Positions 15,677 to 41,528 of a stretch of 64,000 nt of DNA are shown here, in pieces (the first letter of the stretch is position 1; each line of letters starts with the position of its first letter). This DNA is from Bryoerythrophyllum caledonicum (Eukaryota; Streptophyta; Bryopsida; Pottiales; Pottiaceae), in assembly GCA_963971425.1 (NCBI GenBank), contig OZ020520.1, positions 12,957,807-13,021,806 of the forward strand. The letters run 5' to 3'. The notes beneath the pieces are model-generated. The model saw nothing but the letters and a program-made list of their open reading frames with translations. It was not told the DNA's origin and ran no database searches. Both the position numbers and the translations under genes were made by a program.

Positions 15677-16772
15677 CTTCACAGAAACCGCTCGGGTATC
15701 TCCGATTGCCCATCAAAAGCTAGCAGTAGCTAGTGAAAAAGCTCCACAGCCTGCGAGGATAACCATACCACCAAGGCATATGAAACTGGGCTTGCCAATC
15801 GCAATGCTAAACCCTAAGGAACAAAACCACCGGGTTCAGTTCCTAGTACACCGAAACAATGATCTACGCATCGTGAAGAACTCGTATGTTCTGTGAGCTG
15901 AATTCTAGTTCAACCCAGCCATGGCGGTAACTACTCAACCTACAGAGAATCAAATACTCCAACCACCAACAAGCCGGGAAAACAACAACCAACACGGAAG
16001 GAAAAACCACTACAACCCACAGTCCTGATCGATCCCAGAGCTCCTCACTCTTCAGCTCATCACATTGCCAAACGCAATTCAATGGAAACCATCACGCACA
16101 GCTTGTTGACAATCCATGAAAATCATCACCACTACACCCCCTCCCTAATACACCAACTCCACTTCACCGACACCCCACCGCCGGCCCAAGATCATCCTCC
16201 TCAACCACAGCTTGAGCTCACCGCGAAATCAACCTCCTTCCCCAAACCAGGAAACCTCCGACCCAGCCTCACCCCATCTCCTCCAAACCTGCCAAAAAAC
16301 ACCAACAGATGAACACATCCAACCCCAACCATCACAAACGATCTCGTCGACTCCAACCACCTATCCACATAGTACCGAACCTCCAACTCACCACTCACCC
16401 AGCTGCCCTGGAATTCAGTCCTCCACTGCTGCAGTCCTCCGAACCCAGCTCCCGAAACGAGGGCCGCGTTCTCCACGACGAGGTGGCTCAAGCTAGTGGA
16501 GTTGGAGTGATGGCATCTGGACGACGGAAGGTGTGACGCTCCATGTCCATGGCTGTCTGCGCTTGACGCAGCGTCAACTCAGTGTTCATCATGGATCAAT
16601 CCGAGGAGAGAGACGAAGTTCCCGGCGTTGGGAACGTCATCAGTGTGTCCCTGTGTCGGGTCGTTCCCGGGGTGGGAACGCGGAGGGGACCGGGGGAACA
16701 AAATCTATGTAAGATTGAGTGCATCACTGCTGACTTTGAGTCTCTACTCATGTCTAAGCTTAGACAACTTAA
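15677..16772. other. upstream region of eIF2B-alpha, no gene seen
   Basis: The + strand is C-rich and CA/CCA-biased between about 16080 and 16480, giving long spurious Pro/Ser/Thr/His-rich frames with no family resemblance. The stretch probably contains the eIF2B-alpha promoter and 5'UTR. I see no supportable gene. Confidence 0.5.
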
Positions 16773-17695
16773 CCCCTAAGGGACCAAACGTCCCCCCGGG
16801 GTCATTTTGGATTTTGGGCATGTACCTACAATTCGAAAAAAAATCCTTTATAATTGAATTTTTTTATCAAGGTAGGATCTGATAAGAGCTTCGTGGAGAT
16901 ATTTATTTATTTATTTTTGGATTTGTGGTTTGAAAGTCAGTACCACTTAAGCCAAAAGTGGGGACTCCGGGCATCTCCAAAAATTTTGAAAAAAGTTTCT
17001 ACTGACATCGAGATTTTTCACACATATGAAGAATATTTCCTTCTTTGGAAATTTTCAAAAAAAATTCTTGTCTTTAGTGTAAACAAGCATTTTATTCCAA
17101 GTCAAACATTTTCACACGTTGTTGGGCAATGGGGGATAAAAACTTCATCTTTTCTACTTAAAACCTAGAGATCTTCATGTTTTTCACTTTTTATTTTTAC
17201 AACAACAATATGTGGTGAAAACCTTTTTATTGACCGTTTGGATTATCATTTGAATACATACGTAGTTCACAAAAAATAAAACGTGAAATGACAATTTTTG
17301 AACCTCCACTCCTTGCACACTTGTTTTGAATATGCTACCCCCCTTTTTTACCTCTAAAAATTGGTGTGTTGGGTAACAACATCATACTTAAGACAATGGT
17401 AAAAGATTTAGACCTTGTACAATGCAAAAATTGATACAAAGTGAAGTCAAAGTCTGTTGATCTACTTAACGTAGGGAAGAAAATGAACCATTGTTTTGAC
17501 TTTATACACTAAAATCTATCAATCCGTGCGGTGGATTGCAACCAAAATTATGTGGCATGTTTACATAGAAGTCTATTTTAAGATCTTACGGTTGAAAATC
17601 CGAAATTCACTTTAAAATGTGATTTTCATGTCTCTTTTTGGCAGTGGCAGTTTTGGACTGGTTTAAGAGCGAAAGTGGTCGTGGTCCTTTAGGGG
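16773..17695 (-). mobile_element. TTAA-flanked MITE, copy 1
   Basis: CCCCTAAGGGACC at the left and GGTCCTTTAGGGG at the right form an inverted terminal repeat. TTAA lies on both sides (16769-16772 and 17696-17699). The TTAA target and CCC-start termini are those of piggyBac-superfamily elements. The 923-bp body is AT-rich, noncoding, and shares long segments, in reverse orientation, with the copies at 30767, 48759 and 50456. Confidence 0.85.
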
Positions 17696-17707
17696 TTAAC
17701 CCCTTAA

Positions 17708-17720
17708 CCCTTTAACGCCC
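17708..17720 (+). repeat. left 13-bp terminal inverted repeat of the piggyBac element
   Basis: CCCTTTAACGCCC directly follows TTAA (17704-17707). Its perfect inverted partner is at 30750-30762. Confidence 0.88.
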
Positions 17721-18685
17721 GGGACTGTTTCTGGAGAAAAGCAAAAATTCAGTGATTTTCTTGGACGGATGTCTCTGTAGATGTAATGTGAATGAATTTA
17801 CATAAAGTAACCGTACAAAATAAAAGTCAAACGGATAAACTACAGCCTTGTAGATTCTTAGAATCATCCAACGGTGCATTCGGATTATTATAGTATGTAT
17901 ACAGACCGTATATTACACGTGCAACTTTTCTAATTCAAGAGTAGGCAATTTTGATCAGCCACAACATATTAGTTAAATTTTGGATTTTTCTTGTCAATCG
18001 ATTCAACTTAGGAGGCACTCATGAGCAACCAACACAAATTTCAACATTTCCAAAAGGACATTATTTGAATTCGCAATGAATTTTTTAAGTCCATATACAA
18101 TATTTTTGTACATTGAGTGACTCATACAAACATCAACAATTCATATACACATTTAACATAATTCTTATTATAAAGTGGATACATAGATCACTTGCATAGA
18201 TAATTATCTCTACCAAAAAAAAATCCAATAATACAAAACCAAGGTGTGGAAATACGGGATTGTATACAATCTAGCGAAGATTCTACAAAGTATTGTCCAG
18301 GCACCTTATCTTTAGCCCTCATTGTCCTTGATTGGAGCTCAAACAGATTCTTTCTAGGATACATCCATCCACCTTTGAGCCATAAACAAGAAGTCATCTA
18401 CATACAAATCCATCTTTCAATTCCCTAGCATGGGAACACGCTCTCAACCTTCATGTCCTTTGGTGAACGACCCGTTCTCAAAATCAGCCTCAACTTGCCA
18501 CAATCATGTGAAAACAAAACAGTTACTGAGACTCACCTTCCCAATTAGTTGAAAACAAAACGGTTGAACATGTTCACGACCAAATGTGCACGAGACTAAA
18601 CTTGACTTATTCAAAAATACAAACTATTGGATGGCAAAAGTAAGGAGTCTGATAATTAGTTCAAATAACACTGGCATGAAGAAGG
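17721..18685. other. left subterminal noncoding part of the piggyBac element
   Basis: This is AT-rich sequence between the left terminus and the 18.7 kb tandem repeat. I see no coding frame with family resemblance. Confidence 0.5.
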
Positions 18686-19145
18686 AAGAAACTAGCATGA
18701 ACATGATGATGAACTGACATCAACATGAACTAACATAACACTAGCACGAAGAAGGGAGAAACTAACATGAACATGATGATGAACTGTCCATAAGCATGAT
18801 CTAGCATGAATATAATGAAGAATAGTCCATGAACATGAGCATGAACTAACATGAAGATTAGTAAGAAGAATGTCTATGAGCATGAACTAACATGAACATT
18901 AGTATGAAGAATGGAGTAACTAGCATGAACATGAATACTAGTATGAAGAATGTCCATGAGCATGAACTAACATGAACATTAGTATGAAGAATGGAGAAAC
19001 TAGCATGAACATGAATACTAGTATGAAGAATGTCCATGAGCATGAACTAACATGAACGTTAGTATGAAGAATGGAGAAACTAGCATGAATATAATGATGA
19101 ATAGTCCATGAATATGACCATAAACTAACATGAACATGAATTGCT
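18686..19145 (+). repeat. tandem repeat array inside the piggyBac element (80-bp period)
   Basis: The unit beginning CATGAACTAACATGAACATT recurs at 18881, 18961 and 19041, an exact 80-bp period. Degenerate shorter subunits containing CTAGCATGAACATGATGATG extend it on the left to about 18690. Sub-units of roughly 27 bp built on CATGAACAT suggest a higher-order repeat. It lies downstream (3') of the transposase on its coding strand. Confidence 0.85.
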
Positions 19146-19591
19146 CAAACATGATGTTGGGAAGCACTCCCCACTACGGGAAACATGCAATATATTCTAA
19201 TACACAAATCAGGCTTATTCTCCGTAGAATTTAAAAAACACGCCCAAAAAAATCAACATATGATGTTGCACAAATCAAAATCAAAATTAAAAATGAACAT
19301 CCACAAACTTGCGCAAAATGAATGGGCCATTGCCTGCTCGTGGGTTGCTATGTTCAACATTTGGCCAAAAACATGAGACTTCCAAAGCCTTCTTCAGAAG
19401 AAGGCCCAAAAAATATCCCATGAAGGACTCCCCGTTGTTGACCTTCAATTCGGGCATACTTCTTCTTTGCAATAAGAGCTCTTACTTTTTGTCAACACCA
19501 AGAGTTTATGAAATGTGAGAGCACCATCAATGATAATAGTACCAAATACAAGCAAGAAAATCATAAAAACTTGAAATAAAGGAATTTCTAG

Positions 19592-22543
19592 TTACCTCCA
19601 TCGTTTCAACATCCTTTGGAACCCGTGCATTCCCAACATTTGCTTCCATTCTACACATCCACGACAATAGTTGCTATACATGAAATGACAAGAAACACTT
19701 CCGAGGGCATACAACCATCCCTGAACAATGCTCACACAACCACATTGTTCGGTTACGACATCCTTCGTGAGGGCATGACACATTCTCCGTTGTTCTCCCC
19801 TCTAGCTGAAGTGTAGGAGTCGCTCATTCTCAGGCAAGATGCCATGGCCTTGTGCATGCCTCAAGTGATTAGGGCGTCTTTGTCTTCGTGCACCCAACAC
19901 TAGGGTTGGTGCAGCAACATTCTCCAAGCCAGCCAAGTCTACATCCTCATGGTTTGGTTCCACCTCACCATCATCCAGTGGCATTCCAATCAGTGGTGTG
20001 AAACCAATTGAATCTCGAGACAACTAGATCTCAATGTTCAATCCAGATGATGCACCACCACAACTTCCAGCTTGGTAATTTGATGTCCCAGGCCTTCTCT
20101 CCATTGTCTCCGTTTCAGTGCACACACTTGTTATGGAATTCACCTGCTCACCAAAGCCTTCTTTGAGAGGAAACTCCATGAGATCATGGGCAACCACCAA
20201 CATGAAATTCATGTGTGACAACGGATTGGTATTGCTTGCAATACACGATTGTCTGTGGCGCACGTATGCATTTGTGAAACATGCATCCAAACCAAAAAAG
20301 TAAAGCCTATGCCACCATTTCTTGGTGGCAATATTTGTGGTGAACGAAGTTCGCAATTGATCTTGCGTGTCCACACCCCTCATGAACTTTGAATACAACA
20401 TTTGAATAGGGGATGTGGGGATCCTAACCCTCTGGCCTCCAGTATGTCTATCAACAAAAATACCTTTCTTGCGGATTGGGTCAACTGCTGTTGATAGAAA
20501 GTTGACTCCTTACGTGTCTTGCCAATGAATGGCTCAGATACGGCGTTCCTTGTGCACTCTGATGTGCAAGTCACCTCTCGCACCCTTGCTTGAAAGATAC
20601 AAGGAAGACGGATATCCGATACGTCCTTGTCTTATCGTGCCCACTGCATAGAATCCACGGCTCAGCAGATCCTTGAACAACATCAGTGAACTGAAGAAGT
20701 TATCCATCACAACGGTGTAGTTGTGATGCTCCCATCGTTGAGTCAAACGCGTTACAACACCAGCCCCACTTCCACATGCATGAACCGGGAGATTCGCAAT
20801 GGCTTCGTTTGTTGCACCGATGTAGACTTCAAGGCTGAAAATGTACTTGGTTACCGAGCAAGCCATACACCACAACTTGATACCATGGGTTATTGGTTTT
20901 GATGGCATGTACTGCTTAAAAGAGCAAAATCTTCCATTGTAACCAACCATACACTCGTCAACGCACAAGTAAGGTGACGCATTCATGTACTTGTAGAAAT
21001 TTGATATTAAAGAGTCAAGCAACCACCGCACTTGCACAATTGGGTCATACCTTGGATCAAACTTGTCGTGCACAATTGCACTCTTCGGTACCACGTGAAA
21101 TGACTGCAATATGTACAAAAATATGTTCCGAGGCATAGTTTTTGCCACCACCTCGCAATGCAATGATTCCGCACCTATAGACCAGTAGTCCCGAATACTG
21201 GGTTGTTCTCTTATAGCCATGAAAGCACAAATTCCTGTGAACTTTCGAAACTCCGTACGTGTGATGCGTGGCTGCTTTGCTAGACCTCCAACTGTGCCAG
21301 GGTAGCGAGGATGCTTCAATGCGGCATAGTTGTTGGACTCTCGCACAATTTTCTGTAATATCTTGTCGCACCATAACTCAAGGAACAAATCAATAGGACA
21401 AGGGATCTTTCCACCATAGTCTATCTGCGACCCTGGGAGTGGACCACTAAAAGGCTTTCTTTCATACATTGACCAAGTTTTAGCATGCCAATTGCCCTCA
21501 GCATAACGAGACTGAAAGGAGGACTCCTCTTCGGTAAGTGGTCCAAAAGGATACTCACCAATTTCTCCAAGTAATGCTCCAGAGGTGTCTTGAGGGTCAT
21601 GATCACTCTCTCCCGATGAGAGTTCTGCTCCATCAACTTCCCCACCACCTCCACTAACAAGCAAGGCTTCATCAACCTCTAGAATGGAAATGTCTAGGAT
21701 CCAGTCTGGATCACTAAGGTCAGAAGATCCATCCACCATGCCAACATGAATGTAAGGTCCTCCATCTCCATGCATTGGAAACTCCTGATGTCCACTCTTG
21801 GAAAACGAACTTGGCCCCACATTCACGTCACCACAATTCCATGTTGATCCAGAAGCAGTTCCACACCTTCCTCGTTTGGACACAATTCCATCATGTTTCT
21901 CGCTTCTCGCTCCAAGTAGATCACCAATTCCAAAAGGCACTACTGGTGCATTGAAAAATACACCTTCCAATGCACTCTCTTCGGTTTCGATAATTGTTGG
22001 AGGAACCCAAGGACAACAATCTAAAGCAGGAACCATTTGAATTTCTAAATCTAATCCAAAGTCAATTTGAAAGCATGGCTCTCCATCACGTCCATCTAGA
22101 ACAAGTTCTTTCACAAAACCAAATACATATTGACATGGGTTGGACACATATTCACCACCCCAATCTAAGTCTAAAACTCGCACAACAACTTTTTGAAGAA
22201 ATTTCCTACCTTCATCATCCAGATCACTGAGTTCGTCGGGAGAATCGGTCAAACTTGCATCCTGGGTGTCCATGTTCGGGTCAATACATCGAGGGACTTT
22301 ATCCAATTTGGAATACAATGTCGTGTCTAGACTTGGCTCATGGACAATGTCATCGTTATCTTCTGCATGATTTAGGTCACGTCTTCCTAAGCTTTGCATG
22401 CTTGAGTCAACAGAGCTAGTCATCACAACCATGAGAGATTGAAGCCGTTGATTACGTGGCTGAATCACCCTTCCTCCAAGTCCTTCAATATCAATATGAA
22501 GGTATGTCAGTATAACTGCATGATGTCTACAATTGACTTTCAT
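19592..22543 (-). pseudogene. piggyBac-type transposase (DDE_Tnp_1_7), decayed, main exon
   Basis: One minus-strand frame stays open for almost 3 kb apart from four nonsense codons: TGA at 20534-20536, TAA about 24 bases further on, TAG at 20024-20026 and TAG at 19802-19804. No frameshift was found. An acidic Ser/Asp-rich N-terminal ~300 codons lead into the transposase core. The three catalytic Asp are recognisable: VDECMVGYNGR, VVMDNFFSSL and FMRGVDTQDQL. Between the last two lie HWQDT(stop)GVNFLST and PIQMLYSKFMRGVD, which are typical piggyBac motifs. The C-terminal Cys/His stretch (RMCHALT, EQCGCV, VSCHFMYSN) resembles the family's zinc-binding tail. Two stops fall between the second and third Asp, so the enzyme should be dead. 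The frame is joined to upstream small exons. The family call is firm. Confidence 0.88.
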
Positions 22544-22614
22544 GACAAATTACATGACAAATCATCAAAGTCTAAATAAGTAAGACTATTATACTGAATG
22601 AATGATTTCAAATT

Positions 22615-25009
22615 ACCTTGTATATCATCCAATGGTGAAACTGATCCAACTGAAATCTGAGCATGCTTTACAGCATGTAAGCACCTCTTCAGACACCCAG
22701 TGCTTGGTTCGTGGGAGGAGGATGACCGGAGGAATGGTGGAGGGAATTGCCTCGGGACCTCTAGAGGGCCATTATGCAAGGTTGGTTTGTCAATATCAAG
22801 AAGAACCTCCTCAAGGTCTAAGAAACCAGCCTCTTCATGTGAATTGAGCCTTCCAGGGAAAAGAATAGAATTTCGATTAGCACATTTCTTCTTCAGAGAC
22901 TTTGAGATGGGTAGTCCTGCACAAAATACATCAAACATAACATTCTAAGATTATCATAGTAAAGAATACTTATGAACCGGAAATCCTAAATGACACTACA
23001 TTCTAAGCACACATAATTATTCTTGCAATGTATAACCAGAAATAACATGTCTGTGCGGAATATGACAAGCTACAATACCGGTAATACCCGATGAGCCTGT
23101 TTTTTGTCCTGCATCCCTAGTGCGTTTTCTTCCTGCATCCAAGATAGAACCTGAAACGAAACTCATAGAATAAAGTGAATTAAAGCAGTGTCAAGTGCAA
23201 AGCATGTTTGAGAAATACTTTAAACATTGGCAAATCATGAAGCTTGGAGTGGAAAACAAACCTGTTGCAAATAGATGTGCATCGTCCAGTGGTGGAGATG
23301 GCTCATTAATGTTGCACCTTGTCCACAAAGAGAACGAAATAACATTATAAACTACTCATATCATAATATAATGTTGCAGCTCAATCATATACTATGCACC
23401 TTAAATGTACTATGCTACTTTCACGCACACTTTGTGAAACTGGGGCTGCTGCCTGGCAATAAATAATCAACAAGTAAAGGAAGTAGGAAAATGGTAGTCG
23501 TATGAACCTGAAGCAAGGCCAACTCGAAATTGATCAGAGAATGAAACCTGATCAAGAGGACAACCTAGACAAGTTCAAATCAAGACATAAAGCCAAGAGT
23601 GTTGAAGGCCAACGTCACTTCCTAAGCACATGAAAGTATTGAAGGAACATTTGACAATAAACAGTTCAAACTCACAATAATTTCAAGTACTCAAAACCCA
23701 AGCCATTGACAATCAATAGAACATACAAAACATAGCAATAAAAGCCCATGGAAAATCACAGCGAATTTTGGAAAAAACATACCAATCGGCTTCATAGTTA
23801 AGTTTGGTCCAGAAGGTAGCAACGTTGCCACTTCACAGCCTATAGACATCACGTGAAAGGAGAGAGTCATCCTATGAAACACTATCACATGCTGATATGT
23901 GCTAAAACACCTAAACATCTCCTAAGAGAAATTGGAATCAAATTCACCAAAAAGGATGGAACAAACATAAACTTACACCCATTTACGTGGACAATATCAG
24001 CTGTCCCATCGGATTTGGCAACAATGGCACCATAGCATGTCACTGAAGTATAATAGAAGAAACAATTAGCATTTAATGTACGTATGAGCGCTTTGCTTGG
24101 GGACTAGACAAAAGTACAACTTGAATCTACAAATGTTATTTGACATGAGAGCATGAAAGCATTATTAGAAGATACCTGAGAATTGACATGCACATGATAA
24201 TTAAGATATATTATTGTTAATAAAAACGTACTCATGATAATACTCTATATAGTAGGTGCATAAAGGATGGTATTAGGTTTGTTATAGATGTACTTGGTGA
24301 GTCCACGTTGAGGACGCCATGGTGAACACCAACAACCGCTTCAATGTACTCCCCACCTACTTCAAGTCGGTTCAATGACAAAGCAAACTGACTTCAAAAC
24401 TGAGTATGAGAATCCTACTTGCAACTCCATAAATAGAACAAAAGTATACTCATGATGCATGGACAAATGAAAAAGATAAAAACAACAAATTTGACATGCA
24501 ATTATGAAACTAGAAACCAGGTCAACAACAAAATGGGAAAACGAATGGCAGAACATCATACGTGGTGAATGATACTTGGTGAATGCACGTTTCAGTTTAG
24601 ATACTTTTGACTTATCACTGTGCAGTATGTTGATGGACTCCTGGTATTTCGATGTTGCTCTTGCATTGTCAGGACATATTGGTGGCACTATACAAAGACT
24701 TACAGGCTGAAGAACTTCAAAGCTTAATATTTCAGGACCACTCCGTTCATGAAGATGACGATTCATCCTAACCTCAAGGGCAATACTATCAACCAAATGC
24801 TCAACATGACTGAGAAAACTAGAAGAAAGTTTTGCATCACTAGTAGTTGGTGAGGACAAAATGGAATTGCGACTAATCAAAGCTTTCTTTCGCACATAAG
24901 ACCGCACTGGTTTGTTCGTAATTGGACTGATACAAATAGGGATGTTGCTAGCAGCTGCAATTTTTTTTTTTGTCTCAACTTTGACGTCCATAATCACCGG
25001 ATTGCCCAC
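22615..25009 (-). pseudogene. probable 5' exons of the piggyBac transposase gene
   Basis: Several short minus-strand open segments end in splice-like sites and join in phase to the transposase exon. One runs about 22923-22615 (GLPISKSLKKKCANRN to LDDIQG), whose donor joins IDIE|GLGGRVIQPR at about 22487. One at about 23150-23070 (SILDAGRKRTRDAG) links in phase to GLPISK. Others lie at about 23320-23262 (CNINEPSPPLDDAH), 23840-23784 (GCEVATLLPSGPN) and 24030-23977 (CYGAIVAKSDGTADI). The longest runs from an ATG near 25009 to about 24562. None matches a domain I know. The chain implies a long, intron-rich N-terminal region, unusual for piggyBac, but exon calls away from 22.5 kb are inference. 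Confidence 0.45.
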
Positions 25010-26034
25010 AAAGGGGGATGTCCAATTTGATTGTTGTTGGCACCTTGCATGTCATGCACAACATTGGTAGCGCTCTATTCAACTTGGATGGACGCCCATG
25101 CTGGATCAACAGGGCCTTCCATTAGAACGCAATTTGTGCATGAATACAAGAACATCAAATAACAAATGAGATAATACCACTGACATGGAATTTGTGAGAC
25201 AAGCATGCCAATAAGATCAACAAGAAAGAGGATGATCTGTACCAAGAAGCGAAATTAGCCAATCACAAAAAAATCAGTTAATGAAGAAGGAAAACGTACC
25301 AGATGAGAGAGTGGCAGGAGTTGAACAATTTCCACCAGAGCACTCCATCTTATTCTGTGCCAGGGTTCACCACGTCTCTGAGAACAAGAGTGAGAGGAGA
25401 GCCAAGTTCCAAAAATTTGCCTTCAACCCTACAATAGCTCAAAGAGATCGCAAAGAAACTTGCTTCACAAAGCAAGAAAAATAGAAAGCAGAGTTCAACG
25501 CCAAAGAACTCCACTAAGATGTTGTGAAACCCTTGAAAACCTTCTAGAATTGGAATACGTACTAGGAGATAAGATATGTGAAGCAAACCAGATGTTATCG
25601 ACAATTTATGTCCCTCGATGCCTTGCTCAGTTGTCCAATCGTAGAAAAATCTTATTTCCAAATGCAAATGGTGGCTGCGGTAATGGAAAGACATGCCTGC
25701 AATAATGCCCAGAAGTTATTAAACATATAACATGGCGGCTGCATTCAAGGCAACCGTTATAAAAAATCTAACATGGCAATTGCATTCAAGGCAGCCGGCT
25801 TTTGACATTGAGTGAGGTTGCATGGTGCCTAGTGCCGCCAATACCACCGTTTGAATGGAATAGCCATAATATAAACTAACATTATTCCCCACACAACCTA
25901 CTGTTGAAACTCTACTGCTGGTCCATCAAATGAGCTGCACAGGTCATTAGTCTCCTTAGTTTCAACAACAATGATTGGTTAATATTCATGAGTCGGTGGT
26001 TGCAACATACTTGTGAGAATGATGGCTGGATCCT
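25010..26034. other. piggyBac element interior, no recognised gene
   Basis: No frame in this stretch resembles a protein family. It separates the transposase 5' exons from the captured gene fragments. Confidence 0.4.
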
Positions 26035-26411
26035 ACTTGGAATGCTTCAGAACACTCCAGAGAATGCACCGGGAGGCTGGATCCAGTCCAGTGCTCGGCT
26101 CATCCATAAACACCACCTGCAGGAAATTGGTCATCAATCAACCTTTATTCTTTCTATGTGTTGCGTCAATTCAAAGAAAGACCGACATACTCATTATACA
26201 CAAGGAAAACGACGCTCTTTACTGTGATTAATATTAGAGTGTTTTTCATCAAAGCTGACAAATACAAGCAATAGGCTTACTTGTGGGTTGCCAATCAAGA
26301 AGATTGCACAGCCAGCCTTCATTTCATGCCACCTGAGTACCTCCCAAACTGATGATCAGCCACTCCATTGTCCCATAGATTCACGCTTCTCATGGCGCTT
26401 TCAACAGCCTG
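26035..26411 (-). pseudogene. ABCA-family transporter fragment (signature and Walker B region)
   Basis: A minus-strand exon (about 26411-26281) reads AVESAMRSVNLWDNGVADHQ, followed by FGRYSGGMK. This is the ABC signature region of plant ABCA half or full transporters. The next codon is TGA where the family has Arg, followed by a frame slip. A second exon (about 26118-26035) reads [16 protein letters not shown], the Walker B and D-loop. Acceptor and donor sites bound both pieces. No transmembrane domain or Walker A is recognisable here, so this is a small captured and decayed piece of the nucleotide-binding domain. Confidence 0.8.
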
Positions 26412-26811
26412 TAGGACATAACAATCAACCAGCATGAAGTCATTACAAGTTCCTTTGATCACTTTCAAGAGGAGATCATGAGTATTACTGTTACAATATT
26501 TGTAGCTTTGGTGGTATTTAGGAGTTTGGTTGGCCGTTACTCCACTCACATTGGTAAGTTCTGTATCTTTCAAGTTCTTCAAGCGACCATGAACAGAAGA
26601 AGCTTCCGGCTGATCAATTGCCCCCAGAAGTAAACTGTATGTAGAGAAAAATACCAACTTTTATCATAAACTCTTGTCATTTCCCCATATCTGCATACTC
26701 CTAATATAGAACATCATCACATGCACTCTGGCAACTGTTCCGAGATTCCAACTTAGGGTCAGCCTCAATGCACATGAATTAATCCTAGTTGGATACGCTT
26801 ACCTGTCCAAC

Positions 26812-27616
26812 CTAGTAGTACATTGTGGTCTGCGCATCTTGTTTCATGGCACTTCCTATGGAGGAGAAAAGCCCAGCTGCTTGCGTTGGCAGCATGTCAC
26901 CAAACATAGAAATCCCTGCAGCGCCTTTGTCTTTGAACCGGCCTACTTGCGCCTCAGCGAGCACCTTGCTGAACGTTCCCTCTCCGAACTTGCTTCCCAC
27001 TTGTGAAACACACCAAAACATCAAATCATGTTCGAAATGGTCAACGAAATCTTCACAAGACAAATATCTTAAAGAATGATTACAACGTACTAAACATTAT
27101 AATTTACTAATTATCATTGTCTCTCTGAGGGTGGATTATACTGAAAAGAATAAACGGGGAAAACGTAATATTCAGAGAGAATATTTGTGTAAAATCTTGT
27201 TCATGATATGCTTCTGCATATTCTTGGCTCTATAAGAAAGAAAGTAATTAGGAGCTACGTTTCAAATACACAAGTTGCCATGTATAAATTAGAATCAACC
27301 TTGGCCATTGACATGCAGGTGTCTTTTCACCTCATTTCGGGTTAGACTTGGTACTGGTTTATTGTGAAATATCTGTGCATACATAAGACCCTAAAACTAC
27401 ATCCATACACACAAAGGAAACACTTACCCCCATGAGTTGTTGGAGCAGCTTGGCAGATCCTTGAGAATTTTGAGACTGTGAGTTAGCGAAGGAAAACGCA
27501 GATGCATCGTCACTGTGCAATGATGCCCTCCAAGCCGCATCGTTACCTCTTGTGACGGGGTTCGTCGAGACTTGAGTGGAGATGCTTTTGTAACTGAGAA
27601 CAAAGGGGCACTGCAA
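26812..27616 (-). other. unidentified open segments between the ABCA and DHAR fragments
   Basis: Two minus-strand segments (27616-27424, containing NDAAWRASLHSDDASAFSF, and 27063-26812, containing GRFKDKGAAGISMFGDMLP) have exon-like composition and plausible splice borders. I do not recognise them. They may be the N-terminal part of the captured ABCA gene or yet another captured gene. Confidence 0.35.
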
Positions 27617-27969
27617 TTCAAGCGCGAAGAAATATTATTAGAAAGAGTCTCCGCAAAGTTATTCGGGCATAAGAGGAACCCTTAAGCGTTACACCTAAAA
27701 TAAATGATGAGGTTTTAAACTTAGAGATCTTTTCTAATGACTTTACATGTCATATGGAGATATTACAGAGCATGAAAAATGCATCACTTGAAGTATGCAA
27801 GTTGATTGTGCAGTAAGGCAACAACTGGTTATGTTTATTATCTGAAATATACTCTTCCAAATCCAGACAAAAAAGAAGCCAAGGATAGTATAATTGATAT
27901 ACCCAAAAGCAGTACCTGATAGAAAGGTAAGTGAAACGCAGGACTGTTGCAGACATGTTGAGTGTGTGT

Positions 27970-28685
27970 GTCTTCCTTGCTCGAATCGTCTGCGTTCTTG
28001 CTCTTCAGGTACTTCGTGAAAGCTTGGAAAATGTTCAAGCCTCTGTCAATCCAAGGAATCAGTGAGAATAACGGGCTACTACTCATGTAGATACAAATTA
28101 GAATGATATTGTGGCTTACACTTGTTTCAATTCTTGGGGAGTGGCCAGAGAGACCTCGGGGTACTTCGTTTCAAGGTGCTCAGCAATTTTGTCCGAGTCT
28201 TGGATCTAGTCTTCCCCGTCCCGAAGCACAAGCACCAAGCCTTTGGGATTTTTCTGCATGAACCTGCAAATGATTTCCCCCAAAACTGAAACCATTTCCA
28301 TCACATGGTAAAACCACCACATGAAACGATGCAGAATACAGAATACACCAGTCAGGCTTGTTTTCTCCCTCTTCAATGTACGTAGCCGCGTACAGCAGAT
28401 TCTTCTCTGCACACAACAAACGCAACATGTGAGCATAATGTAGACTTTGGCAGAAAAATGGAGGTCCAGCCCAACATAAATACCTTCTAACTCCATGTAA
28501 ATCCGCTGCAAGAATGGGCCTGCAACCTCAAAATGGGTCACCGCAGAGAAACTCACCTCAATAGAAAGGAAAAGGAAAACAACAACAACAACCACCACCA
28601 CTTGAATAAGTTGGAACTCACAATCGCCTCGCTCCTTGCTGGGGCTGCCGGATTTTTGTGGAACATCGGTATGAAGACATTTCAG
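27970..28685 (-). pseudogene. dehydroascorbate reductase (DHAR, GST superfamily) gene fragment with introns
   Basis: Five minus-strand exons splice in phase: 28685-28622, 28519-28484, 28406-28349, 28263-28120 and 28042 to about 27975. The joined frame has SPSKERGDC then PFLQRIYMELEEKNLLYAA. That is the GDCPF glutathione-thiol site region of DHAR, with the catalytic Cys followed by Pro-Phe. ENKPDWFMQKNPKG, SDKIAEHLETKYPEVSLATP and IFQAFTKYLKSKNADDS follow. The first codons and the whole C-terminal helical domain are absent. A TAG interrupts GED(stop)IQDSDK, where Trp is expected. Because introns are retained, the fragment was captured as genomic DNA, not as a retrocopy. Confidence 0.85.
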
Positions 28686-28930
28686 CTGGATCAGGGAGCC
28701 AAAAAGCATAGCACAACTTTGATAATACCGTCGCTCTTGCTCCCATAAATATGACTCATTTCTGCAGTAGCACATAAATCAGAGCTCATGAGATCTCAAT
28801 CTCTACTAAAAACAACAAACCCTGAAATTCCAAAAATCTAAAAACCCCTACATATGCAAGCTCAACCTGAAATGAAGGTGAAAAGACAAAAAGCATAGCA
28901 CAGGAAGATTGTCAAAAATTTGCCAACGTC

Positions 28931-29580
28931 ATGTTGCAATGTTTAAGCTTTTCCTCGTCATTTGCTGGACCAATGGACCTAAGTGTGTTAAGCACGGCAT
29001 CAAAATTTTCACCCCTCTTGACGATATCTGATCTCAAGACAGGCACAGAGGATGATCCTCCAATAACGTCCAAGAAGCAAAAACATCAAAACCTGGATAA
29101 GGTTGTACCTGTAAAGCTGTTGCCACGCATGCCACCGTGGCTGTTACAGAATGCTCAAAGAGTCTACAAAGCTCTTGCGAGTATCATCAGGCTTGTAGGT
29201 CGAGCAGCTGGCTCTGGTAAATCTCAATCTTTTGTGCTAAATACCTATATAATAAATGCATTTTACTAAAGGTTGAAAAGCTTTGAGTCTGTAGATAGTC
29301 ATGGGGAACCTGCTTTGATGCGTGTGGTGGAGATCCTCTTGGAATCTTTACAACAAGCAGCGAATGAGCTCCATGAGCAAGCATCTCATAGCTCGGACGG
29401 TGGCTCTAGACAACCACAACGTGCATCTGCCGCATCAGTTTGCGTTCTCAGTGAGCTTGTGTATAGTACCTCAGAGGTATGGACTGATGAACTCGTCAGT
29501 CTCTTTGGTGGTCGATCATCCAAAGATCATTATGAGAAATGGCAGTTCGAGAATGAGACTGAAGTAATTCACTACAGAAT
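28931..29580 (+). pseudogene. possible TTI1-like HEAT-repeat protein fragment
   Basis: Plus-strand frames 28931-29217 and 29271-29580 are bridged by a plausible 53-base intron (GGCTCTG|GTAAAT to CTAAAG|GTTG). They read QRVYKALASIIRLVGRAAGSG and SAASVCVLSELVYSTSEVWT. This recalls the plant TTI1 (TELO2-interacting protein 1) segments around its ILRLVG and CILNE motifs. The fragment has no start and runs into low-complexity sequence. It points opposite to the DHAR and ABCA pieces. The family call is tentative. Confidence 0.4.
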
Positions 29581-30749
29581 AGAGAAACTCCAAACCAATC
29601 ACGCAACAACCACTCACAAAGGCTTCCACACATCCGCCTCACCTCAAACAAACCACACAAACAGCCACAATACTCCCTTTCTTCATCTCCAACAAGATAC
29701 TGCCGAAACTATTCAGCGCAACCCTATCCAAACTGGCCCCTCTCCATAAGAGCATCAAAGAGAGCATCAAACCTTTGACCATCCCAGCAATCAACCCCAA
29801 CATATTGACCTGCACACTGAGAATACTTCCGCCGAAATGCTTAGATCGATGCCTCCATGCTCAGCGCCTTCAACTCCACAGTATTCCACGCACGACGTCG
29901 CCCTAATCCGCCACAGCTCCTCCGACGGAGGCTTCTGCCACTTTTGAGGGTGGATGTGCATGATCTTGACTCGTGCCTTGAACCGCAACGCTCCGACAAT
30001 GGCATCGATCATGTTCATCGCATTGAACACCACCACCTCACCGCAATAGCGTCGACATGATCGAATGTAAGCGTCGACACGATCAAGTGTCTACTCTTGT
30101 TTGCTCAATCGCACCGGAGCCAGCCCGTCAATATTGTCGAAGAACATATTGAAGAGTGCATTGGCTAAACATCTCTTCACCACGCTGCCAGCTCCCGCCG
30201 CAATGCTCTTCACCACGCGAGATAGGGTTTGGCTATGGTGTATACACAGCGCCAACAAGCACTTTTAAATTTTGAGCTTCTCGTTCGGAATCAACCCTAA
30301 TTGCAAGCACGATCCAAGAGCAAAGCCACCATCGAAGAGCGCATGGGGTAAGCAAATCGGACTCACCCACCAAAGGAACCGCTCAAACCCCCCAACCTTT
30401 CGACACCCTGGAAGAGAAGACGATTACAACAACAAAACGTTGCGAACCTCACATTGATAAAATACACGCTCGCATGACTCGCGCAAACTGGATGACTTCT
30501 GTATGCCAGACTGTCTTTTCTTTTGTTGTCTCTCCAGCACATCTTTTTGCGTATGAGTTTAGAAACGGCCAAATACGGACCGTAATTCGTGGCCACAAGG
30601 CGCACCAATTGTCCAATGCCCACCATTTTTGGTTGTGAGCATTCACAAATACATTAGCTAGATCTGAACCTCATATTGGAGATTTCAATTCCTGCGGATT
30701 TCATGCTATAGCCTATATTCTACCTTGAGCGTCCCATTTCGAGCTTCGT

Positions 30750-30762
30750 GGGCGTTAAAGGG
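30750..30762 (-). repeat. right 13-bp terminal inverted repeat of the piggyBac element
   Basis: GGGCGTTAAAGGG directly precedes TTAA (30763-30766). All 13 bases are complementary to the left end. Confidence 0.88.
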
Positions 30763-30766
30763 TTAA

Positions 30767-31672
30767 AGCCTGTAACAACTTCACACCAAAAACACTTCAA
30801 AATTGTTGATTCTAGTGCGATGAGCAAGGAAGGAAATAAAACCTTATGTTTATCCTTTTGACCGTAGGATCTCCATGAAGGCTTACTAAGTAACATACTC
30901 ACCAAGTTTCATACACTTTGACCGCACGGATTGAAAGATTGTAGTGTTTGAAGTCAAGAAAAGGGTTCATTTTCTTCCTTGTGTTGAGTGGATCAGCAGA
31001 CTTTGACTTCACTTGGTATTAGATTTTTGCACTACACAAGGTCTATATCTTTTACCATTGTGTTGAGCATGATGTTGGTTCCCGATACAACAATTTTTAG
31101 AGGTAGAGAAGGGGTGTAGCATATTCAATACAAGTATGCAAGGAGTGGAGGTTCAAAAATTGTCAACTCATAATTTATTTTTGTGAGAATTTAATATGTT
31201 TTAGAATGATAATCTAAATGGTCAATTAGAAGGTTTACAGCACATATTGCTATAGAAAAAAAATAAAATGAAAAATATAAAGATCTCTAGGTTTTATGAA
31301 AAAAATATGAAGTTTTTTTCCCCGCTTGCTTGAAATGTGTACAGGATGTGTTAAAATGTTTTTTTACACTAAAGACAAGAATTTTTTTTGACATCTTCAT
31401 AGAACGTAATATTCTCTGCATGTATGGAAAATCTCAATGTCAATAGAGACTTCTAGCAAAATTTTGGAGCTGCCTGGAGTCCCGATTTCTAACTTTGAGT
31501 GGTACTAACTTTCAAACCATGAATCCAAAAATAATAATAATAATATCTCCATGGAGCTCTTATTGGGGAAAATTTATTATAAGAGTTTAAAGAAAAAAAA
31601 ATTGTTTTTGAATTGTAGGAACCTGCCCAAAATCCAAAATATACGCCCGACGTACACTTGGGCTCTCAGGGG
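30767..31672 (+). mobile_element. TTAA-flanked MITE, copy 2
   Basis: Its body matches the copies at 48759 and 50456 in the same orientation, starting CACACCAAAAACACTTCAAA near 30782. The right end GGGG is followed by TTAA at 31673-31676. The left end is degenerate (AGCCTGTAAC instead of CCCCTAAGG) and abuts the 13-kb piggyBac element at a shared TTAA. Noncoding. Confidence 0.75.
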
Positions 31673-31676
31673 TTAA

Positions 31677-32213
31677 AACCGGCTGGCGATCCAATACTGC
31701 TCCCTTTTATACCCCTCCTAGATTCTAAGAAGAGAATGTAGCCCATCTTTACATGACTTATGCAATGACGAATGAGTTCGTAAGTGTTGTGATGATCGGC
31801 CACAAGTCTAGGAAGGGTATAGAAAGGGAGCAGTATTGAGTCGCCACTCGGTTTTGGATTATCCTACCTTGTCTGGAGGTGGATTGGCTTCGTTCATGGA
31901 GTTTGTAAAGCATCTCTGCATATTTGCCATGGGCTCCTAATACACTTAGTTATAAGCAAATATGGTGTCGGTTGATGGATGTGGTAAAACTTAGTAGAGG
32001 TTAAAAGTTAGTAGTGGGTTTAATCCTTGAACGTCAGTTGAGAACCATATCTATAGGCATGTGTTTTTTCTCTATAGAATATTAAAAAATAATGTGTTGA
32101 AGTTCAGTAAGACATATACCTTTTGATTAAAGGTTCTTCAACCAATATCTTTTTTTTGTAAGTGATTTCAATCTCTGAACCTTATCAAGTTCAAATATGA
32201 CACCATATGTATG
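31677..32213. other. intergenic, no gene seen
   Basis: AT-rich sequence between MITE copy 2 and the LTR. Nothing identifiable. Confidence 0.5.
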
Positions 32214-32586: not shown

Positions 32587-32861
32587 GTTTGTCGAGACTG
32601 TCTTCATCTTCAATATCAGAGTTAGACTTTTCTTGGAGAGTGTGGATCACCCCTCTTTTTGCAAAGTGCATTAACGCATTAGGAGTTGCAGATTGCTCTC
32701 TTCTAAATTGATATTTCTTTCTTAACAATATTAAAGCTTTATTTTTTATGAAAGAGTGGATCACCCCTCTCCTTAAAAGTATTAAGGCGTTTTAGAGGTT
32801 GCAGATTACCCTCCTCTAGACCAATACTGTGTTTCTTTAGATTCATTTTTTTTCTTTCAGA

Positions 32862-32957
32862 ATGATTGGAGGTCAAGATATCAGTATGAATGAAACTTCT
32901 AAGTCCAAGTTAGACGCAATCATGAACGCTCTCGTAGCTTTATCAACTAGAACTACC
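32862..32957 (+). CDS. retroelement ORF start (gag-like), truncated by the bacterial junction
   Basis: ATG at 32862 opens about 31 codons with plant-like AT-rich composition (SKLDAIMNALVALSTR). At about 32957 the text switches, without stop or gap, to GC-rich bacterial coding sequence in the same frame. The short N-terminal helix is compatible with a gag start but has no diagnostic motif. Confidence 0.4.
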
Positions 32958-33461
32958 GCCAAGGACGACGAGATCTGGGTCTACTTGCCCGCGCTGAAGA
33001 AGCCGCGTCGCCTTGCCAGTAACAACAAGAAGAGCAGTTTCGTTGGCACTGACCTGTCCTATGGCGACATCGTCGGCCACAAGCCGCAAGATTGGAACCA
33101 CAAGCTGCTTCGTCAAGAATCGCTCGACGGGTCACTGACATATGTCGTCGAGTCACTGCCTGCCGTTGCCGCGGTCGCATCCGACTCAGGGTATTCGAAG
33201 CGGGTGAGCTGGGTCGCCAAGGACAGCTTCGTCGCGGTCAAAACCGACTTTTTTGACACGGCTGGGGCGTTGTTGAAGACGGCGACGAGTTCAGAGCTCA
33301 AGCTCGTCGATGCGAACAAACAGAAGTGGCAGCCGATGTTGGTGCAAGTCAAGAATTACCAGACAGGACACAGCACGGCGGTAAGGATGGAGAAGTTCGA
33401 GGCAAACACCAAAGTCGGTGACGAATATTTCTCGGTCCGATACCTGGAAAAGGAAGAGTAG
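32958..33461 (+). CDS. bacterial outer-membrane lipoprotein-sorting (LolA-like) protein, 5'-truncated
   Basis: From AKDDEIWVYLPALKKPRRL the frame matches the LolA-like family found beside RND/MMPL exporters in Proteobacteria. Diagnostic text includes RRLASNNKKSSFVGTDLSYGD and the C-terminal TAVRMEKFEANTKVGDEYFS. Signal peptide and roughly the first third are missing, replaced by retroelement sequence at the junction. It ends TAG at 33461, five bases before the next ATG, in a bacterial operon arrangement. Codon use is GC-rich, unlike the flanking plant DNA. Confidence 0.8.
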   Translation, partial: AKDDEIWVYLPALKKPRRLASNNKKSSFVGTDLSYGDIVGHKPQDWNHKLLRQESLDGSLTYVVESLPAVAAVASDSGYSKRVSWVAKDSFVAVKTDFFDTAGALLKTATSSELKLVDANKQKWQPMLVQVKNYQTGHSTAVRMEKFEANTKVGDEYFSVRYLEKEE

Positions 33462-33465
33462 AGCG

Positions 33466-34704
33466 ATGCGCTCTGTCTGCGCCGCGGCCGCCGCTGCGGC
33501 CGCCGTGCTCATCGGCAGCTCTCCGACAGTGAGCTTGGCTCAGGGCACGCCATTTGGTGAATGCCGCGCAGGGTACTGGTCGTCCAACCGGAACCTTGAC
33601 GACGAAGATGGCGCGCCGAAGGCAACTTGCTTCGTCAATTGGAAGCCAACGCTATCCCAGGGGGTGCGCCTGGGTTTCAACGCGCAAGCGGGATGGCAAG
33701 ACACGAGGGATGCCAACAGCTCAAGTGCACGGGTCCGCGAGGGCTTCGTCGAGTGGGAAACAGGCGCGTGGACGGCCCGCTTTGGCCGGCAAATCATTGC
33801 TTGGGGACGCTCCGATCGGGTGAACCCAACAGACAGCCTGTCGCCGCGCGATTTCACGTCGCTCGTCGCCGAGGACGAGGAGCAACGTCGCGGCATCGAC
33901 TCGATGTTGCTGCGCTACCAACTGGACGATGCGCTCTCACTCACTGGCATTGTGGCCAAGTTTGAGCCGCATCGAACGCCGCAGGGAACGCTGCCACCCA
34001 ACCTGATCCGAGACTCAAGGCCCGATCGATCAGAGTGGGGAGCCAAGCTCGATCACACAGGCAACGGTTTGGACTGGTCGCTGTCGTACTTCGACGGGTA
34101 CGACCGATACTCGCGTTATTGGGCGCAGCCTCTGTCTCCCACGTCTGTTGTTTTTCGTGGCGCACACGAGCGGGCTCGGACCTTCGGGGCTGACTTCGCG
34201 ACCGCAGCAGGCGCATGGACGCTACGAGGTGAATTTTCATACTCGCAGCTGGCGCTTGACTGCACTGGTTTTTGCGCCCTGCCAAAACGCAGAGTCGCAC
34301 GCGCAGTGCTCGGCGTGGATCGCGGCTTTTGGGAGACAGCCAATGTCAATGCCCAAGTCTTCGCCGTCAAGCGCAGTTACCGCGAACCAACCTCAGCCTC
34401 GGGGCTGCAGCAAGCGATCGCACTCGGCTTGGATCGGCTGAACTCGGAGTTCTCAGACTTGGAATGGGGTGCAACGCTGCGGGTCTCGGACACGCTGATG
34501 AACGAGCGTTTGAGGCTTGAAGTCTCTGGCATTGCTGACTTCACCAATCGCAGCGGTGTGGTGCGCCCGCGTGCAACCTATGCCTTCAGTGACGCGTCAA
34601 GGCTTGCCGTGGGACTCGACTACTTCAGAGGTCAGGCGCAATCATTTTTTGGTGTGCGCAAGACCAACCGGGTTTCTTTCGTTGAACTGGTCTTTGTGTA
34701 CTGA
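33466..34704 (+). CDS. bacterial outer-membrane beta-barrel protein (DUF1302-like)
   Basis: The 412-aa protein starts at ATG 33466, four bases after the preceding stop and just behind a purine-rich GGAAAAGGAAGAG ribosome-binding site. It has an Ala-rich signal peptide ending near VSLAQG. The mature part alternates aromatic and polar residues like a porin and contains FGRQIIAWGRSDRVNPTD, characteristic of the DUF1302 family. It ends in an aromatic C-terminal residue (VELVFVY) typical of Bam-assembled barrels. These proteins usually sit next to the LolA-like gene and an RND exporter. Intron-free and intact. Confidence 0.85.
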   Translation: MRSVCAAAAAAAAVLIGSSPTVSLAQGTPFGECRAGYWSSNRNLDDEDGAPKATCFVNWKPTLSQGVRLGFNAQAGWQDTRDANSSSARVREGFVEWETGAWTARFGRQIIAWGRSDRVNPTDSLSPRDFTSLVAEDEEQRRGIDSMLLRYQLDDALSLTGIVAKFEPHRTPQGTLPPNLIRDSRPDRSEWGAKLDHTGNGLDWSLSYFDGYDRYSRYWAQPLSPTSVVFRGAHERARTFGADFATAAGAWTLRGEFSYSQLALDCTGFCALPKRRVARAVLGVDRGFWETANVNAQVFAVKRSYREPTSASGLQQAIALGLDRLNSEFSDLEWGATLRVSDTLMNERLRLEVSGIADFTNRSGVVRPRATYAFSDASRLAVGLDYFRGQAQSFFGVRKTNRVSFVELVFVY

Positions 34705-34879
34705 ACGTCGTGCAACTGTAAGAACAGCACAGATCCAACGTTGTTCCTGATGCTGGGCATGCATCGCGTCGGATGTTTTTCCCCTGCTGCGTGAGGGAGA
34801 ACGCGCAGACGCTTGACTCTGCAGCTGCTACAGGTTTTCCAATCCATCATCGACGTGGCGCGATCCTGTGGAAGGCGAA

Positions 34880-35650: not shown

Positions 35651-35763
35651 CCAGTCTGATGGACTCGACGTGAATCTGGCAGTCAACGATCGCACGGTCG
35701 TTCGGTGGCGAGTTTGAGGAAGATTGCAATGAGTCCCGACCTCGCAGGCCCGATTCAGTGTGC

Positions 35764-36310
35764 GGGACCTTCCCCCTGCTGGCCGAGGGGCACCTGGACA
35801 TCCATGCGCTGAAGAGCGTGTCCGGGGTAAAGCGCTAGCCCCACAGGTGCGCAGGACAGCAGGGCCGCAGCGCAGCGTCTGGTGCAAGAACACCGGTACA
35901 GCCAGCGCCGCGCTTGCGCCCTTGTGGGGCTAAGCAGAGACGCATTGCGCAACCCCGCCAGTGACCAGCCCGCAGGAGCAAGCCTTGAGAGAAGCATCAA
36001 GACCATGGCGCTGCAGCGCCGCCGCTTCGGCTACCGGCGTGTGCACGACCTGCTGCGTGTGATTCACCCCGGGTTGAACCACAAGCGGGTGTACCGCTTG
36101 TGCAAGGACGAGAACCTGGCCGTGAGCAAGCGCCGCAAGGGGCGCAGGCCACTGAACGAGCGGGTGCCGTTGTTTGCCGCAGTGCAACTGAACCAAACCT
36201 GGAGCATCGACTTGGTCAGCGACAGCCTGTCCAGCGGTCGGCGCGCCGACCGTGGCCGACGACTTCAGCCAGGAGTGCGTCAGCATCGTGGTTAACTTCG
36301 GTAGTCCGCC
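35764..36310 (+). pseudogene. IS3-family transposase (OrfA end plus OrfB N-terminal part), broken
   Basis: Near 35790, HLDIHALKSVSGVKR then a stop resembles the end of an IS3 OrfA. The ORF from 35882 (YSQRRACALVGLSRDALR, RRRFGYRRVHDLLR, NHKRVYRLCKDENLAV) is OrfB of the IS407/IS3 group. At about 36235 the frame slips; the other frame continues with TVADDFSQECVSIVV and ends soon after. The DDE catalytic core is mostly absent. This is a bacterial IS remnant. Confidence 0.85.
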
Positions 36311-36364
36311 CTGAACAATTAGTACGTCGTGAATAACCTGTTGTCAACGGGCAGACAGTGCCAG

Positions 36365-41500: not shown

Positions 41501-41528
41501 AAGGTGATCACAAGATCTACAAGCACTA

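What the first reader, a model, noticed from the sequence alone, without database searches (positions are those of the whole stretch)
17708..30762. Giant 13-kb piggyBac element with captured host genes (a 'Pack-piggyBac')
Seen: perfect 13-bp inverted termini with TTAA on both sides at 13,055 bp distance, a piggyBac transposase inside, and intron-bearing fragments of at least two unrelated plant genes (DHAR, ABCA), possibly a third (TTI1-like). Known: piggyBac has 13-bp termini and TTAA targets and is usually a few kb; gene capture in plants is described for MULEs, Helitrons and CACTA elements. Inference: this is a gene-capturing piggyBac lineage in a bryophyte-type genome, which I do not recall being described.
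Basis: partly seen in the sequence, partly recalled or inferred. Interest (0 to 1): 0.9.

Follow-up and report, generated by a model that had tools for sequence, protein, structure and literature searches.

The report
Gene-capturing piggyBac transposon family
A jumping gene of the piggyBac kind in a green-lineage genome has picked up pieces of unrelated host genes, seven so far, and spread them around the genome, a habit known for other plant jumping genes but not, as far as we could find, for piggyBac.

Summary
In detail: window 17,708-30,762 is one 13,055-bp piggyBac insertion. The 13-bp termini are perfect, TTAA stands on both sides, and the joined flanks restore an interrupted MITE. In the window's own unnamed 437-Mb genome, 11 of 25 listed matches cover nearly all of the left 701 bp at 90% identity or more. 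At least seven copies have both ends located. The gene pieces are captures from identified host loci: COG1 (94-96% identical), DHAR (94%) and TTI1 (96%). They keep introns, and the donor genes continue past the captured stretches. An ABCA piece is older. Other copies carry MATE, GyrB or ThrRS pieces. Pre-capture states survive: seven copies have an uninterrupted TTI1 site, C10a has COG1 without DHAR, and C10b has ThrRS without GyrB. Of eight junctions with both partners known, five show 3-4 bp microhomology, two have 2-6 bp of unmatched bases and one is blunt. One template-copied filler also occurs. This favours repair-coupled capture. The window's transposase is broken. The Pack-TYPE passages I read name MULE, CACTA, hAT, PIF and Mariner; my searches found no piggyBac case. 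Host species, expression and function remain unknown.

The parts
17704..17707 (.). left TTAA target-site copy
   Evidence: direct reading
17708..17720 (+). left 13-bp terminal inverted repeat CCCTTTAACGCCC
   Evidence: perfect pair; 33 exact TTAA+terminus sites in the genome, reversed-pattern control 0
17708..18404 (+). left end region shared by the family
   Evidence: 11 of 25 listed genome matches, this copy included, cover nearly all of the 701-bp query at 90-100% identity
18665..19137 (.). 39-41/80-bp tandem repeat array inside the left part
19677..22549 (-). transposase: DDE core 20024-22549 and C-terminal Cys-rich end near 19677-19823; broken by in-frame stops and frame changes
   Evidence: DDE_Tnp_1_7; piggyBat 9c0f E 6.6e-15 and piggyBac-type 6x67 E 2.8e-14; breaks; Cys-rich end recognised by eye
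25302..25349 (-). possible first exon of the transposase gene (ATG, then a GT donor)
   Evidence: inference from sequence only
26012..26682 (-). captured ABCA transporter fragment (nucleotide-binding domain exons, introns kept, in-frame stops)
   Evidence: ABCA3 7w01 E 1.2e-18 on joined exons with X at stops; borders; also in the C1, C2, C8 and two C4 copies, ending at 26682 in three of them
26679..27973 (-). captured COG1 fragment, first part
   Evidence: 96.0% identical to C14:2496903-2498199; donor gene carries PF08700 E 6.9e-15 upstream
27971..28652 (-). captured DHAR fragment inserted into the COG1 piece (introns kept; in-frame stop in the third exon)
   Evidence: 94.0% identical to C12:4378516-4379203; DHAR 5d9w E 7.1e-21; C10a copy lacks it
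28650..28814 (-). captured COG1 fragment, second part
   Evidence: 94.5% identical to C14:2496725-2496889
28807..28867 (+). inner edge of the family's right end
   Evidence: present in the C2, C4a, C10b, C7, C15, C4b and C8 copies
28868..28898 (+). 31-bp filler; its 3' part repeats 28697-28715 (95% over 19 bases)
28899..29565 (+). captured TTI1 fragment (exons and a short intron)
   Evidence: 96% identical (640 of 667) to C14:2856839-2857505; donor PF21547 TTI1 E 6.1e-25
29566..30762 (+). right end region shared by the family
   Evidence: 80-94% identity to other copies
30750..30762 (-). right 13-bp terminal inverted repeat
30763..30766 (.). right TTAA target-site copy
16769..17699 (-). neighbouring TTAA-CCCCTAAGG MITE (not part of the element)
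17696..17703 (+). first 8 bp of the interrupted second MITE (not part of the element)
   Evidence: joined flanks align end to end with two other MITE copies
30767..31676 (+). rest of the interrupted second MITE (not part of the element)

Best explanation
This is one member of a multi-copy piggyBac family that has acquired host gene fragments one after another and transposed them. Shown: a TTAA-targeting unit with its own (now broken) transposase; fragments of ABCA, COG1, DHAR and TTI1 with introns, so copied from DNA; donor loci for three of the four; relatives with the same ends but other cargo (MATE, GyrB, ThrRS; donors found for the last two); and surviving pre-capture states. These give the order ABCA, then COG1, then TTI1 (its filler copies part of the COG1 piece), then DHAR inside COG1; in a sister branch GyrB went inside ThrRS. 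Inferred: pieces were copied in during repair of a double-strand break in the element (after excision, or a break at rest), when the repair strand copied an ectopic gene before rejoining at microhomology or with a few filler bases. Later transposition, with transposase supplied in trans for the non-autonomous copies, spread the captured pieces.
For: Boundaries: perfect termini, TTAA on both sides, joined flanks equal an intact MITE. Copies: 11 of 25 left-end matches at 90% or more over nearly all 701 bp. C10:10376808-10380428 (C10a) has perfect termini and TTAA at both ends and keeps COG1 and TTI1 pieces without the transposase. C4:7502203-7506770 (C4a) carries GyrB and ThrRS. C1 at about 64.451-64.464 Mb is a second copy of about 12.8 kb. 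Donors: COG1 96.0/94.5%, DHAR 94.0%, TTI1 96%, GyrB 96%, ThrRS 93%. Pre-capture: of 14 right-end matches, 7 have the two sides of the TTI1 site exactly adjacent, 1 has 15 bp between the matched parts, 3 carry TTI1 sequence, 3 do not cover the site. C10a has uninterrupted COG1 including 13 bp lost in the window. C10b has an uninterrupted 701-bp ThrRS stretch (94.9%) where C4a has GyrB. Microhomology of 3-4 bp at 5 of 8 junctions with both partners known; random joins of window sequence reach 3 bp in 5.4%.
Against: The repair step rests on eight junctions: one is blunt and the two C4a ones show no microhomology but 2 and about 6 unmatched bases. The ABCA and MATE pieces have only distant exon matches as possible donors. 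Several copies have decayed or nested ends, and the transposase shows near-neutral substitution between copies (dN/dS about 0.85 and 1.05, stop codons dropped), so present activity is not shown. No reads, transcripts or alleles could be examined.
Confidence: 0.9

Rival explanations
1. A different gene-capturing element (Helitron, Pack-MULE or similar) carrying the fragments jumped into an ordinary piggyBac.
For: Helitrons and Pack-MULEs are the classic gene carriers (PMC6431247 and PMC13317346, passages); the cargo lies together on one side of the transposase.
Against: Three fragments have separate donors and separate borders. The TTI1 site shows no target-site duplication and no matching inverted ends, and the DHAR site shows a 13-bp loss. 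By eye the TTI1 insert lacks the TC...CTRR ends that I recall for Helitrons. Different copies hold different genes between the same piggyBac ends.
Confidence: 0.04
2. Capture by joint mobilisation of two neighbouring insertions of the same family that flank host DNA, as proposed for Pack-CACTA and other Pack-TYPE elements.
For: It is the published model for Pack-TYPE elements (PMC8903248, passages).
Against: No internal copy of the terminus within 3 mismatches in the window element. The donors lie on other chromosomes (C12, C14), and pieces sit inside earlier material at microhomologies or with filler, which that model does not predict.
Confidence: 0.12
3. The two 13-mers are unrelated and the region is ordinary flanking DNA or an assembly chimera.
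For: The window has a 200-N gap and a bacterial-like block a few kb away, so misassembly nearby is possible.
Against: Joined flanks restore a MITE and simulated sequences give no such pair; the same joined fragments recur in copies on other chromosomes.
Confidence: 0.01

Closest known systems
Pack-TYPE transposons (Pack-CACTA, Pack-hAT, Pack-PIF, Pack-Mariner; PMC8903248, passages read)
   Same: TIR-bounded DNA elements carrying host gene fragments, with the cargo duplicated to new sites
   Different: The word piggyBac does not occur in that paper's main text. The window copy still holds transposase sequence, and its junctions suggest repair-type capture rather than joint mobilisation of neighbours.
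Pack-MULEs (PMC13317346, passages)
   Same: Elements carrying and multiplying host gene fragments
   Different: Different transposase, termini and target-site duplication (recalled). That 2026 review has 0 occurrences of piggyBac in its main text.
Helitrons (PMC6431247, passages)
   Same: Capture of several gene fragments in one element
   Different: Rolling-circle elements; no TIR/TTAA cut-and-paste anatomy
Teratorn (PMC6431247, passages)
   Same: piggyBac-type transposase with large foreign cargo
   Different: 41-182 kb herpesvirus fusions in fish with 18-bp TIRs; mainly viral cargo
Coral piggyBac MITEs, CMITE (PMC2872659, one passage)
   Same: piggyBac-type ends with unexplained interiors for which the authors suggest transduplication as one possibility
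   Different: No donor sequence was found there; here five donors are located

Membership tests
piggyBac superfamily | TTAA target duplicated on insertion | tested here: met
   TTAA on both sides and MITE empty site; TTAA on both sides of the C10a and C4a copies
piggyBac superfamily | short TIR beginning CC[C/T]T | tested here: met
   CCCTTTAACGCCC; the motif is called a hallmark in PMC2872659 (passage)
piggyBac superfamily | DDE_Tnp_1_7 transposase | tested here: met
   E 1.7e-57; piggyBat and piggyBac-type chains in the PDB
piggyBac superfamily | C-terminal Cys-rich domain | tested here: inconclusive
   Cys-rich C-terminal stretch read by eye in the window and C2 copies; no profile tested; the feature itself is recalled
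piggyBac superfamily | seamless excision | not testable with these tools
   needs alleles or an assay
Pack-TYPE transposon | host gene fragments between the TIRs | tested here: met
Pack-TYPE transposon | cargo moved to new sites with the element | tested here: met
   C10a, C1, C7 and C3 copies
Pack-TYPE transposon | non-autonomous (no functional transposase) | tested here: inconclusive
   C10a, C4a and C3 lack the transposase region; the window, C2 and C8 copies hold it and the window's is broken
Helitron | no TIR, no target duplication, TC...CTRR ends (recalled) | tested here: not met
   TIR and TTAA present; TTI1 insert ends printed

The most novel reading that the evidence does not exclude
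A whole piggyBac lineage, not one odd element, acts as a serial gene-shuffling machine in this genome: break repair copies host exons into it, even piece inside piece (DHAR in COG1, GyrB in ThrRS), and transposition then spreads the composites, some of which may be transcribed as new chimeric genes or act as small-RNA sources against the donors.
Probability: 0.35. Interest if true: 0.9.

Novelty: new variant of a known kind. Interest (0 to 1): 0.78.

Why it matters
It would add piggyBac, a superfamily widely used in gene delivery, to the gene-capturing transposons of the green lineage. Donors, empty sites and intermediate states are all preserved in one genome, so it also gives an unusually readable record of how a cut-and-paste element acquires host DNA. 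The capture mechanism can then be tested by counting junction types across the family.

Tried and rejected
Nested Helitron or MULE: no suitable ends or target duplications at the cargo borders that I read. Internal terminus copies: none. First impression that the captured DHAR had lost its catalytic cysteine: withdrawn, because at the donor that codon appears split by an intron (my reading). TTI1 by Pfam or PDB on the fragment alone: no hit, solved through the donor. COG1 by PDB: no meaningful hit, solved by Pfam on the upstream donor exon. Protein search with the whole transposase ORF: 2 weak hits; with the DDE region: 9 hits, best by E-value 62% identical, no organism names. First impression that the C10b interior holds no captured gene (by eye): wrong, it holds a 701-bp ThrRS piece. 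C15 (11.1 kb read) matches none of the five donor loci held. The 653-bp insert in C10a and the 1,561-bp replacement in C1 were not identified. The host was not identified. A literature query on capture mechanism timed out. A transposase count in the genome did not complete (family query).
Full report
1. The observation. The 13-mers at 17708-17720 and 30750-30762 are perfect inverted copies with TTAA on both outer sides. In 200 sequences simulated from the window's dinucleotide content no such pair appeared, and no further copy with up to 3 mismatches lies between them. The strongest boundary evidence is independent of the termini. The flanks are two members of a 0.9-kb TTAA-bounded MITE family present elsewhere in the window. 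Taking out 17708-30766 and joining the flanks at one TTAA gives a complete 922-bp MITE, which aligns end to end with the copies at 16769-17699 and 48757-49706. The 13,055-bp unit therefore went in as one insertion, or grew inside one.

2. The transposase. An ORF on the minus strand matches Pfam DDE_Tnp_1_7 (E 1.7e-57, then 1.7e-7 in the next piece), and piggyBat and piggyBac-type chains in the PDB. It is broken by in-frame stops and frame changes. The core ORF of the copy at C2:12.90-12.92 Mb is open for 544 codons. Against that ORF, dN and dS are nearly equal (window 0.075/0.088 over 537 codons, 5 codons with stops dropped; C8 copy 0.076/0.072 over 504 codons, 2 dropped; codons with gaps also left out), so these copies have mostly drifted. 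Of nine database relatives of the DDE region, the best eight are 49-63% identical and the ninth 35%; none bears an organism name.

3. Copies. The genome (437,360,962 bp, 894 contigs, unnamed) has 33 exact TTAA+terminus sites, two of them the window's, against 0 for the reversed pattern. Several of the others belong to sibling families with different interiors. The left 701 bp finds 25 matches; 11 of them (the window included) cover nearly all of it at 90-100% identity. Both ends were located for at least seven copies. W is the window. C10a is C10:10376808-10380428 (3,621 bp with both TTAA), with perfect termini. C4a is C4:7502203-7506770 (4,568 bp), with one terminus 1 mismatch off. C3 is C3:37347464-37349937, with degraded termini. 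C2 is about 24.3 kb with nested DNA and has a degraded right end. C15 is about 23 kb, with a right end 1 mismatch off. C1 is about 12.8 kb, with a right end 1 mismatch off; its left end is known only from the search listing. C4b (left 16.254 Mb by listing, right 16.290 Mb read) would be an eighth, about 36 kb with nested DNA.

4. The captured pieces. A DNA search of the genome with window 25700-29800 returned 51 matches. Besides family copies they include three stretches that match single cargo blocks. COG1: window 26679-27973 plus 28650-28814 matches C14:2496725-2498199, in one run without the DHAR block. DHAR: 27971-28652 matches C12:4378516-4379203. TTI1: 28899-29565 matches C14:2856839-2857505. 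Identities are 96.0 and 94.5%, 94.0%, and 640 of 667 bases. At each of these loci the gene continues past the captured stretch. DHAR has further C-terminal exons and GST N and C domains. TTI1 has downstream exons with PF21547 at E 6.1e-25. The third gene has an upstream exon with the Vps51/EXO84/COG1 domain at E 6.9e-15; that it is COG1 rather than another Vps51-type protein rests on my recall of plant COG1. Introns are kept, so the pieces were copied from DNA. The ABCA piece (26012-26682) is shared with the C1, C2, C8 and two C4 copies. Its possible donors match only in short exon-sized stretches at 70-86%, so I take it as an older capture.

5. Other cargo. The C2 and C8 copies carry ABCA plus a MATE-transporter piece (HvAACT1, E 6.3e-17; TIGR00797, E 2.1e-7; no Pfam hit). 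That block is shared at 81-93% by several further loci and has no close donor among 53 listed matches. C4a carries GyrB (TIGR01059, E 4.8e-18) and cytosolic-type ThrRS (TIGR00418, E 4.2e-18; PDB 4hwt, E 3.8e-14) pieces. Their donors are at C9:19634286-19635348 (96%) and C11:4406351-4407447 (93%); that these genes run on beyond the captured stretch is my reading of the translations, not a profile test. The C7:24.32 Mb copy shares both, the C3 copy keeps ThrRS only, and C10b holds 701 bp of the ThrRS locus at 94.9%. C15, as far as read, matches none of the five donors. Seven host genes are therefore represented. Six lie on the transposase strand and TTI1 on the other, too few to call a bias.

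6. Order of events. At the TTI1 site, of 14 right-end matches, 7 have the two sides exactly adjacent (C2, C4a, C10b, C7:24.32 Mb, C15, C4b, C8). One (C7:29.88 Mb) has 15 bp between the matched parts, 3 carry TTI1 sequence (W, C1, C10a) and 3 do not cover the site. Three empty junctions were read directly. C10a has TTI1 with the same filler, and COG1 without DHAR, including 13 bp of COG1 that the window lost when DHAR came in. The filler before TTI1 contains a near copy (95% over 19 bases) of 28697-28715, which lies in the COG1 piece. ABCA is in copies that lack COG1. Hence ABCA, then COG1, then TTI1, then DHAR. In the sister branch C4a keeps 26 bp of the ThrRS locus, then GyrB, then more ThrRS, while C10b has the ThrRS stretch unbroken: GyrB replaced about 640 bp inside the ThrRS piece.

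7. Mechanism. In the window the junction overlaps are ATTT (ABCA/COG1), TCT (COG1/DHAR), GGA (DHAR/COG1), TAAA (COG1/right end), CACA (filler template/TTI1) and 0 (TTI1/right end); the right-end/filler junction has no known donor. The two GyrB junctions of C4a show no overlap but 2 and about 6 unmatched bases (my reading). That is 5 of 8 with 3 bp or more. With 5.4% for random joins (300,000 joins of window sequence) the chance of 5 or more in 8 is about 2e-5 by my arithmetic; itself gives 2.6e-6 for 5 of 6, the window junctions alone. No target duplications were seen at the cargo borders that I read. This is what break repair with template switching or end joining would leave. It differs from the joint mobilisation of neighbouring insertions proposed for other Pack-TYPE elements (PMC8903248, passages), for which I would expect internal termini. 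I hold the capture itself at about 0.95. The repair mechanism I hold at 0.6, lowered from 0.65 on checking because the C4a junctions lack microhomology.

8. Novelty. PMC8903248 (passages) names MULE, CACTA, hAT, PIF and Mariner and has no occurrence of piggyBac. The 2026 review PMC13317346 (passages) has none either. 'Pack-piggyBac' is in 0 papers of the held library, and the other answered searches listed no case (listings). I opened passages of the four papers that hold piggyBac and transduplication, and of the one holding piggyBac and gene capture: the coral paper raises transduplication as a possible origin of piggyBac MITE interiors without a donor (PMC2872659); the others do not report piggyBac capture in the passages shown (PMC8232201, PMC2528002, PMC6710886, PMC10004981). 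On piggyBac in plants: a 2008 paper says only five other superfamilies were described in plants to date (PMC2528002), a 2023 review lists PiggyBac MITEs in angiosperms (PMC10004981), and the fern Ceratopteris repeat table lists PiggyBac (PMC6890710). Most subscription papers and bioRxiv preprints outside the library were not searched.

9. Limits. A bacterial-like block a few kb away warns that the assembly may not be clean everywhere.

Noticed in passing
window 32841-37664 (GC 57-62%): Bacterial-type genes in a plant-type contig: LolA-like, DUF1302, transglutaminase, an IS3 transposase fragment and a LuxI-type autoinducer synthase. The three LuxI relatives found in genome contigs, by short matches only, are beta-proteobacterial or Burkholderiales MAGs. 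Either horizontal transfer or an assembly chimera; a 200-N gap follows at 39807-40006.
   Followed up: partly
window 16769-17699, 17696-31676 (interrupted), 48757-49706, 51463-52499: A 0.9-kb TTAA-bounded MITE family with termini CCCCTAAGG..., 75-96% alike in the window, itself piggyBac-like but with different ends.
   Followed up: partly
L040 (C12:22432700-22434200): Another terminus of the same type borders a MITE sequence as the window's right end does (aligned to window 30749-31249), suggesting a second insertion into the same MITE position.
   Followed up: no
L012, L013, L015, L022, L025 and L010, L020, L021: Sibling families share the terminus and some tens of bp of the left or right end but have other interiors; whether they also carry genes was not checked.
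   Followed up: no
L009 3562-4213: About 650 bp of GC-rich sequence sits inside the TTI1 piece of the C10a copy and looks coding in places; a possible eighth capture (no Pfam hit).
   Followed up: partly
C1:64452770-64454330 (between L062 and L053 matches): In the C1 copy 1,561 bp of other DNA stands where the window has 28074-29389; not identified.
   Followed up: no
L030 5596-6450 (C4): A roughly 0.85-kb element with TTAA and terminus CCCTTTAGCGCCC at both ends, near the C4a copy.
   Followed up: no
L048/L037 and L074 2960-3138: C10b also shares 186 bp at 79% with the region downstream of the captured ThrRS stretch, probably an unrelated repeat.
   Followed up: no
window 5204-5992, 41508-42968, 44670-47128, 62782-62864: Clp protease subunit ORF, La-domain ORF, VIT/VWA ORFs at about 60% GC, and a tRNA.
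   Followed up: no
window 31675-31855: Imperfect palindrome directly after the interrupted MITE (self-complementary match 68.6%).
   Followed up: no
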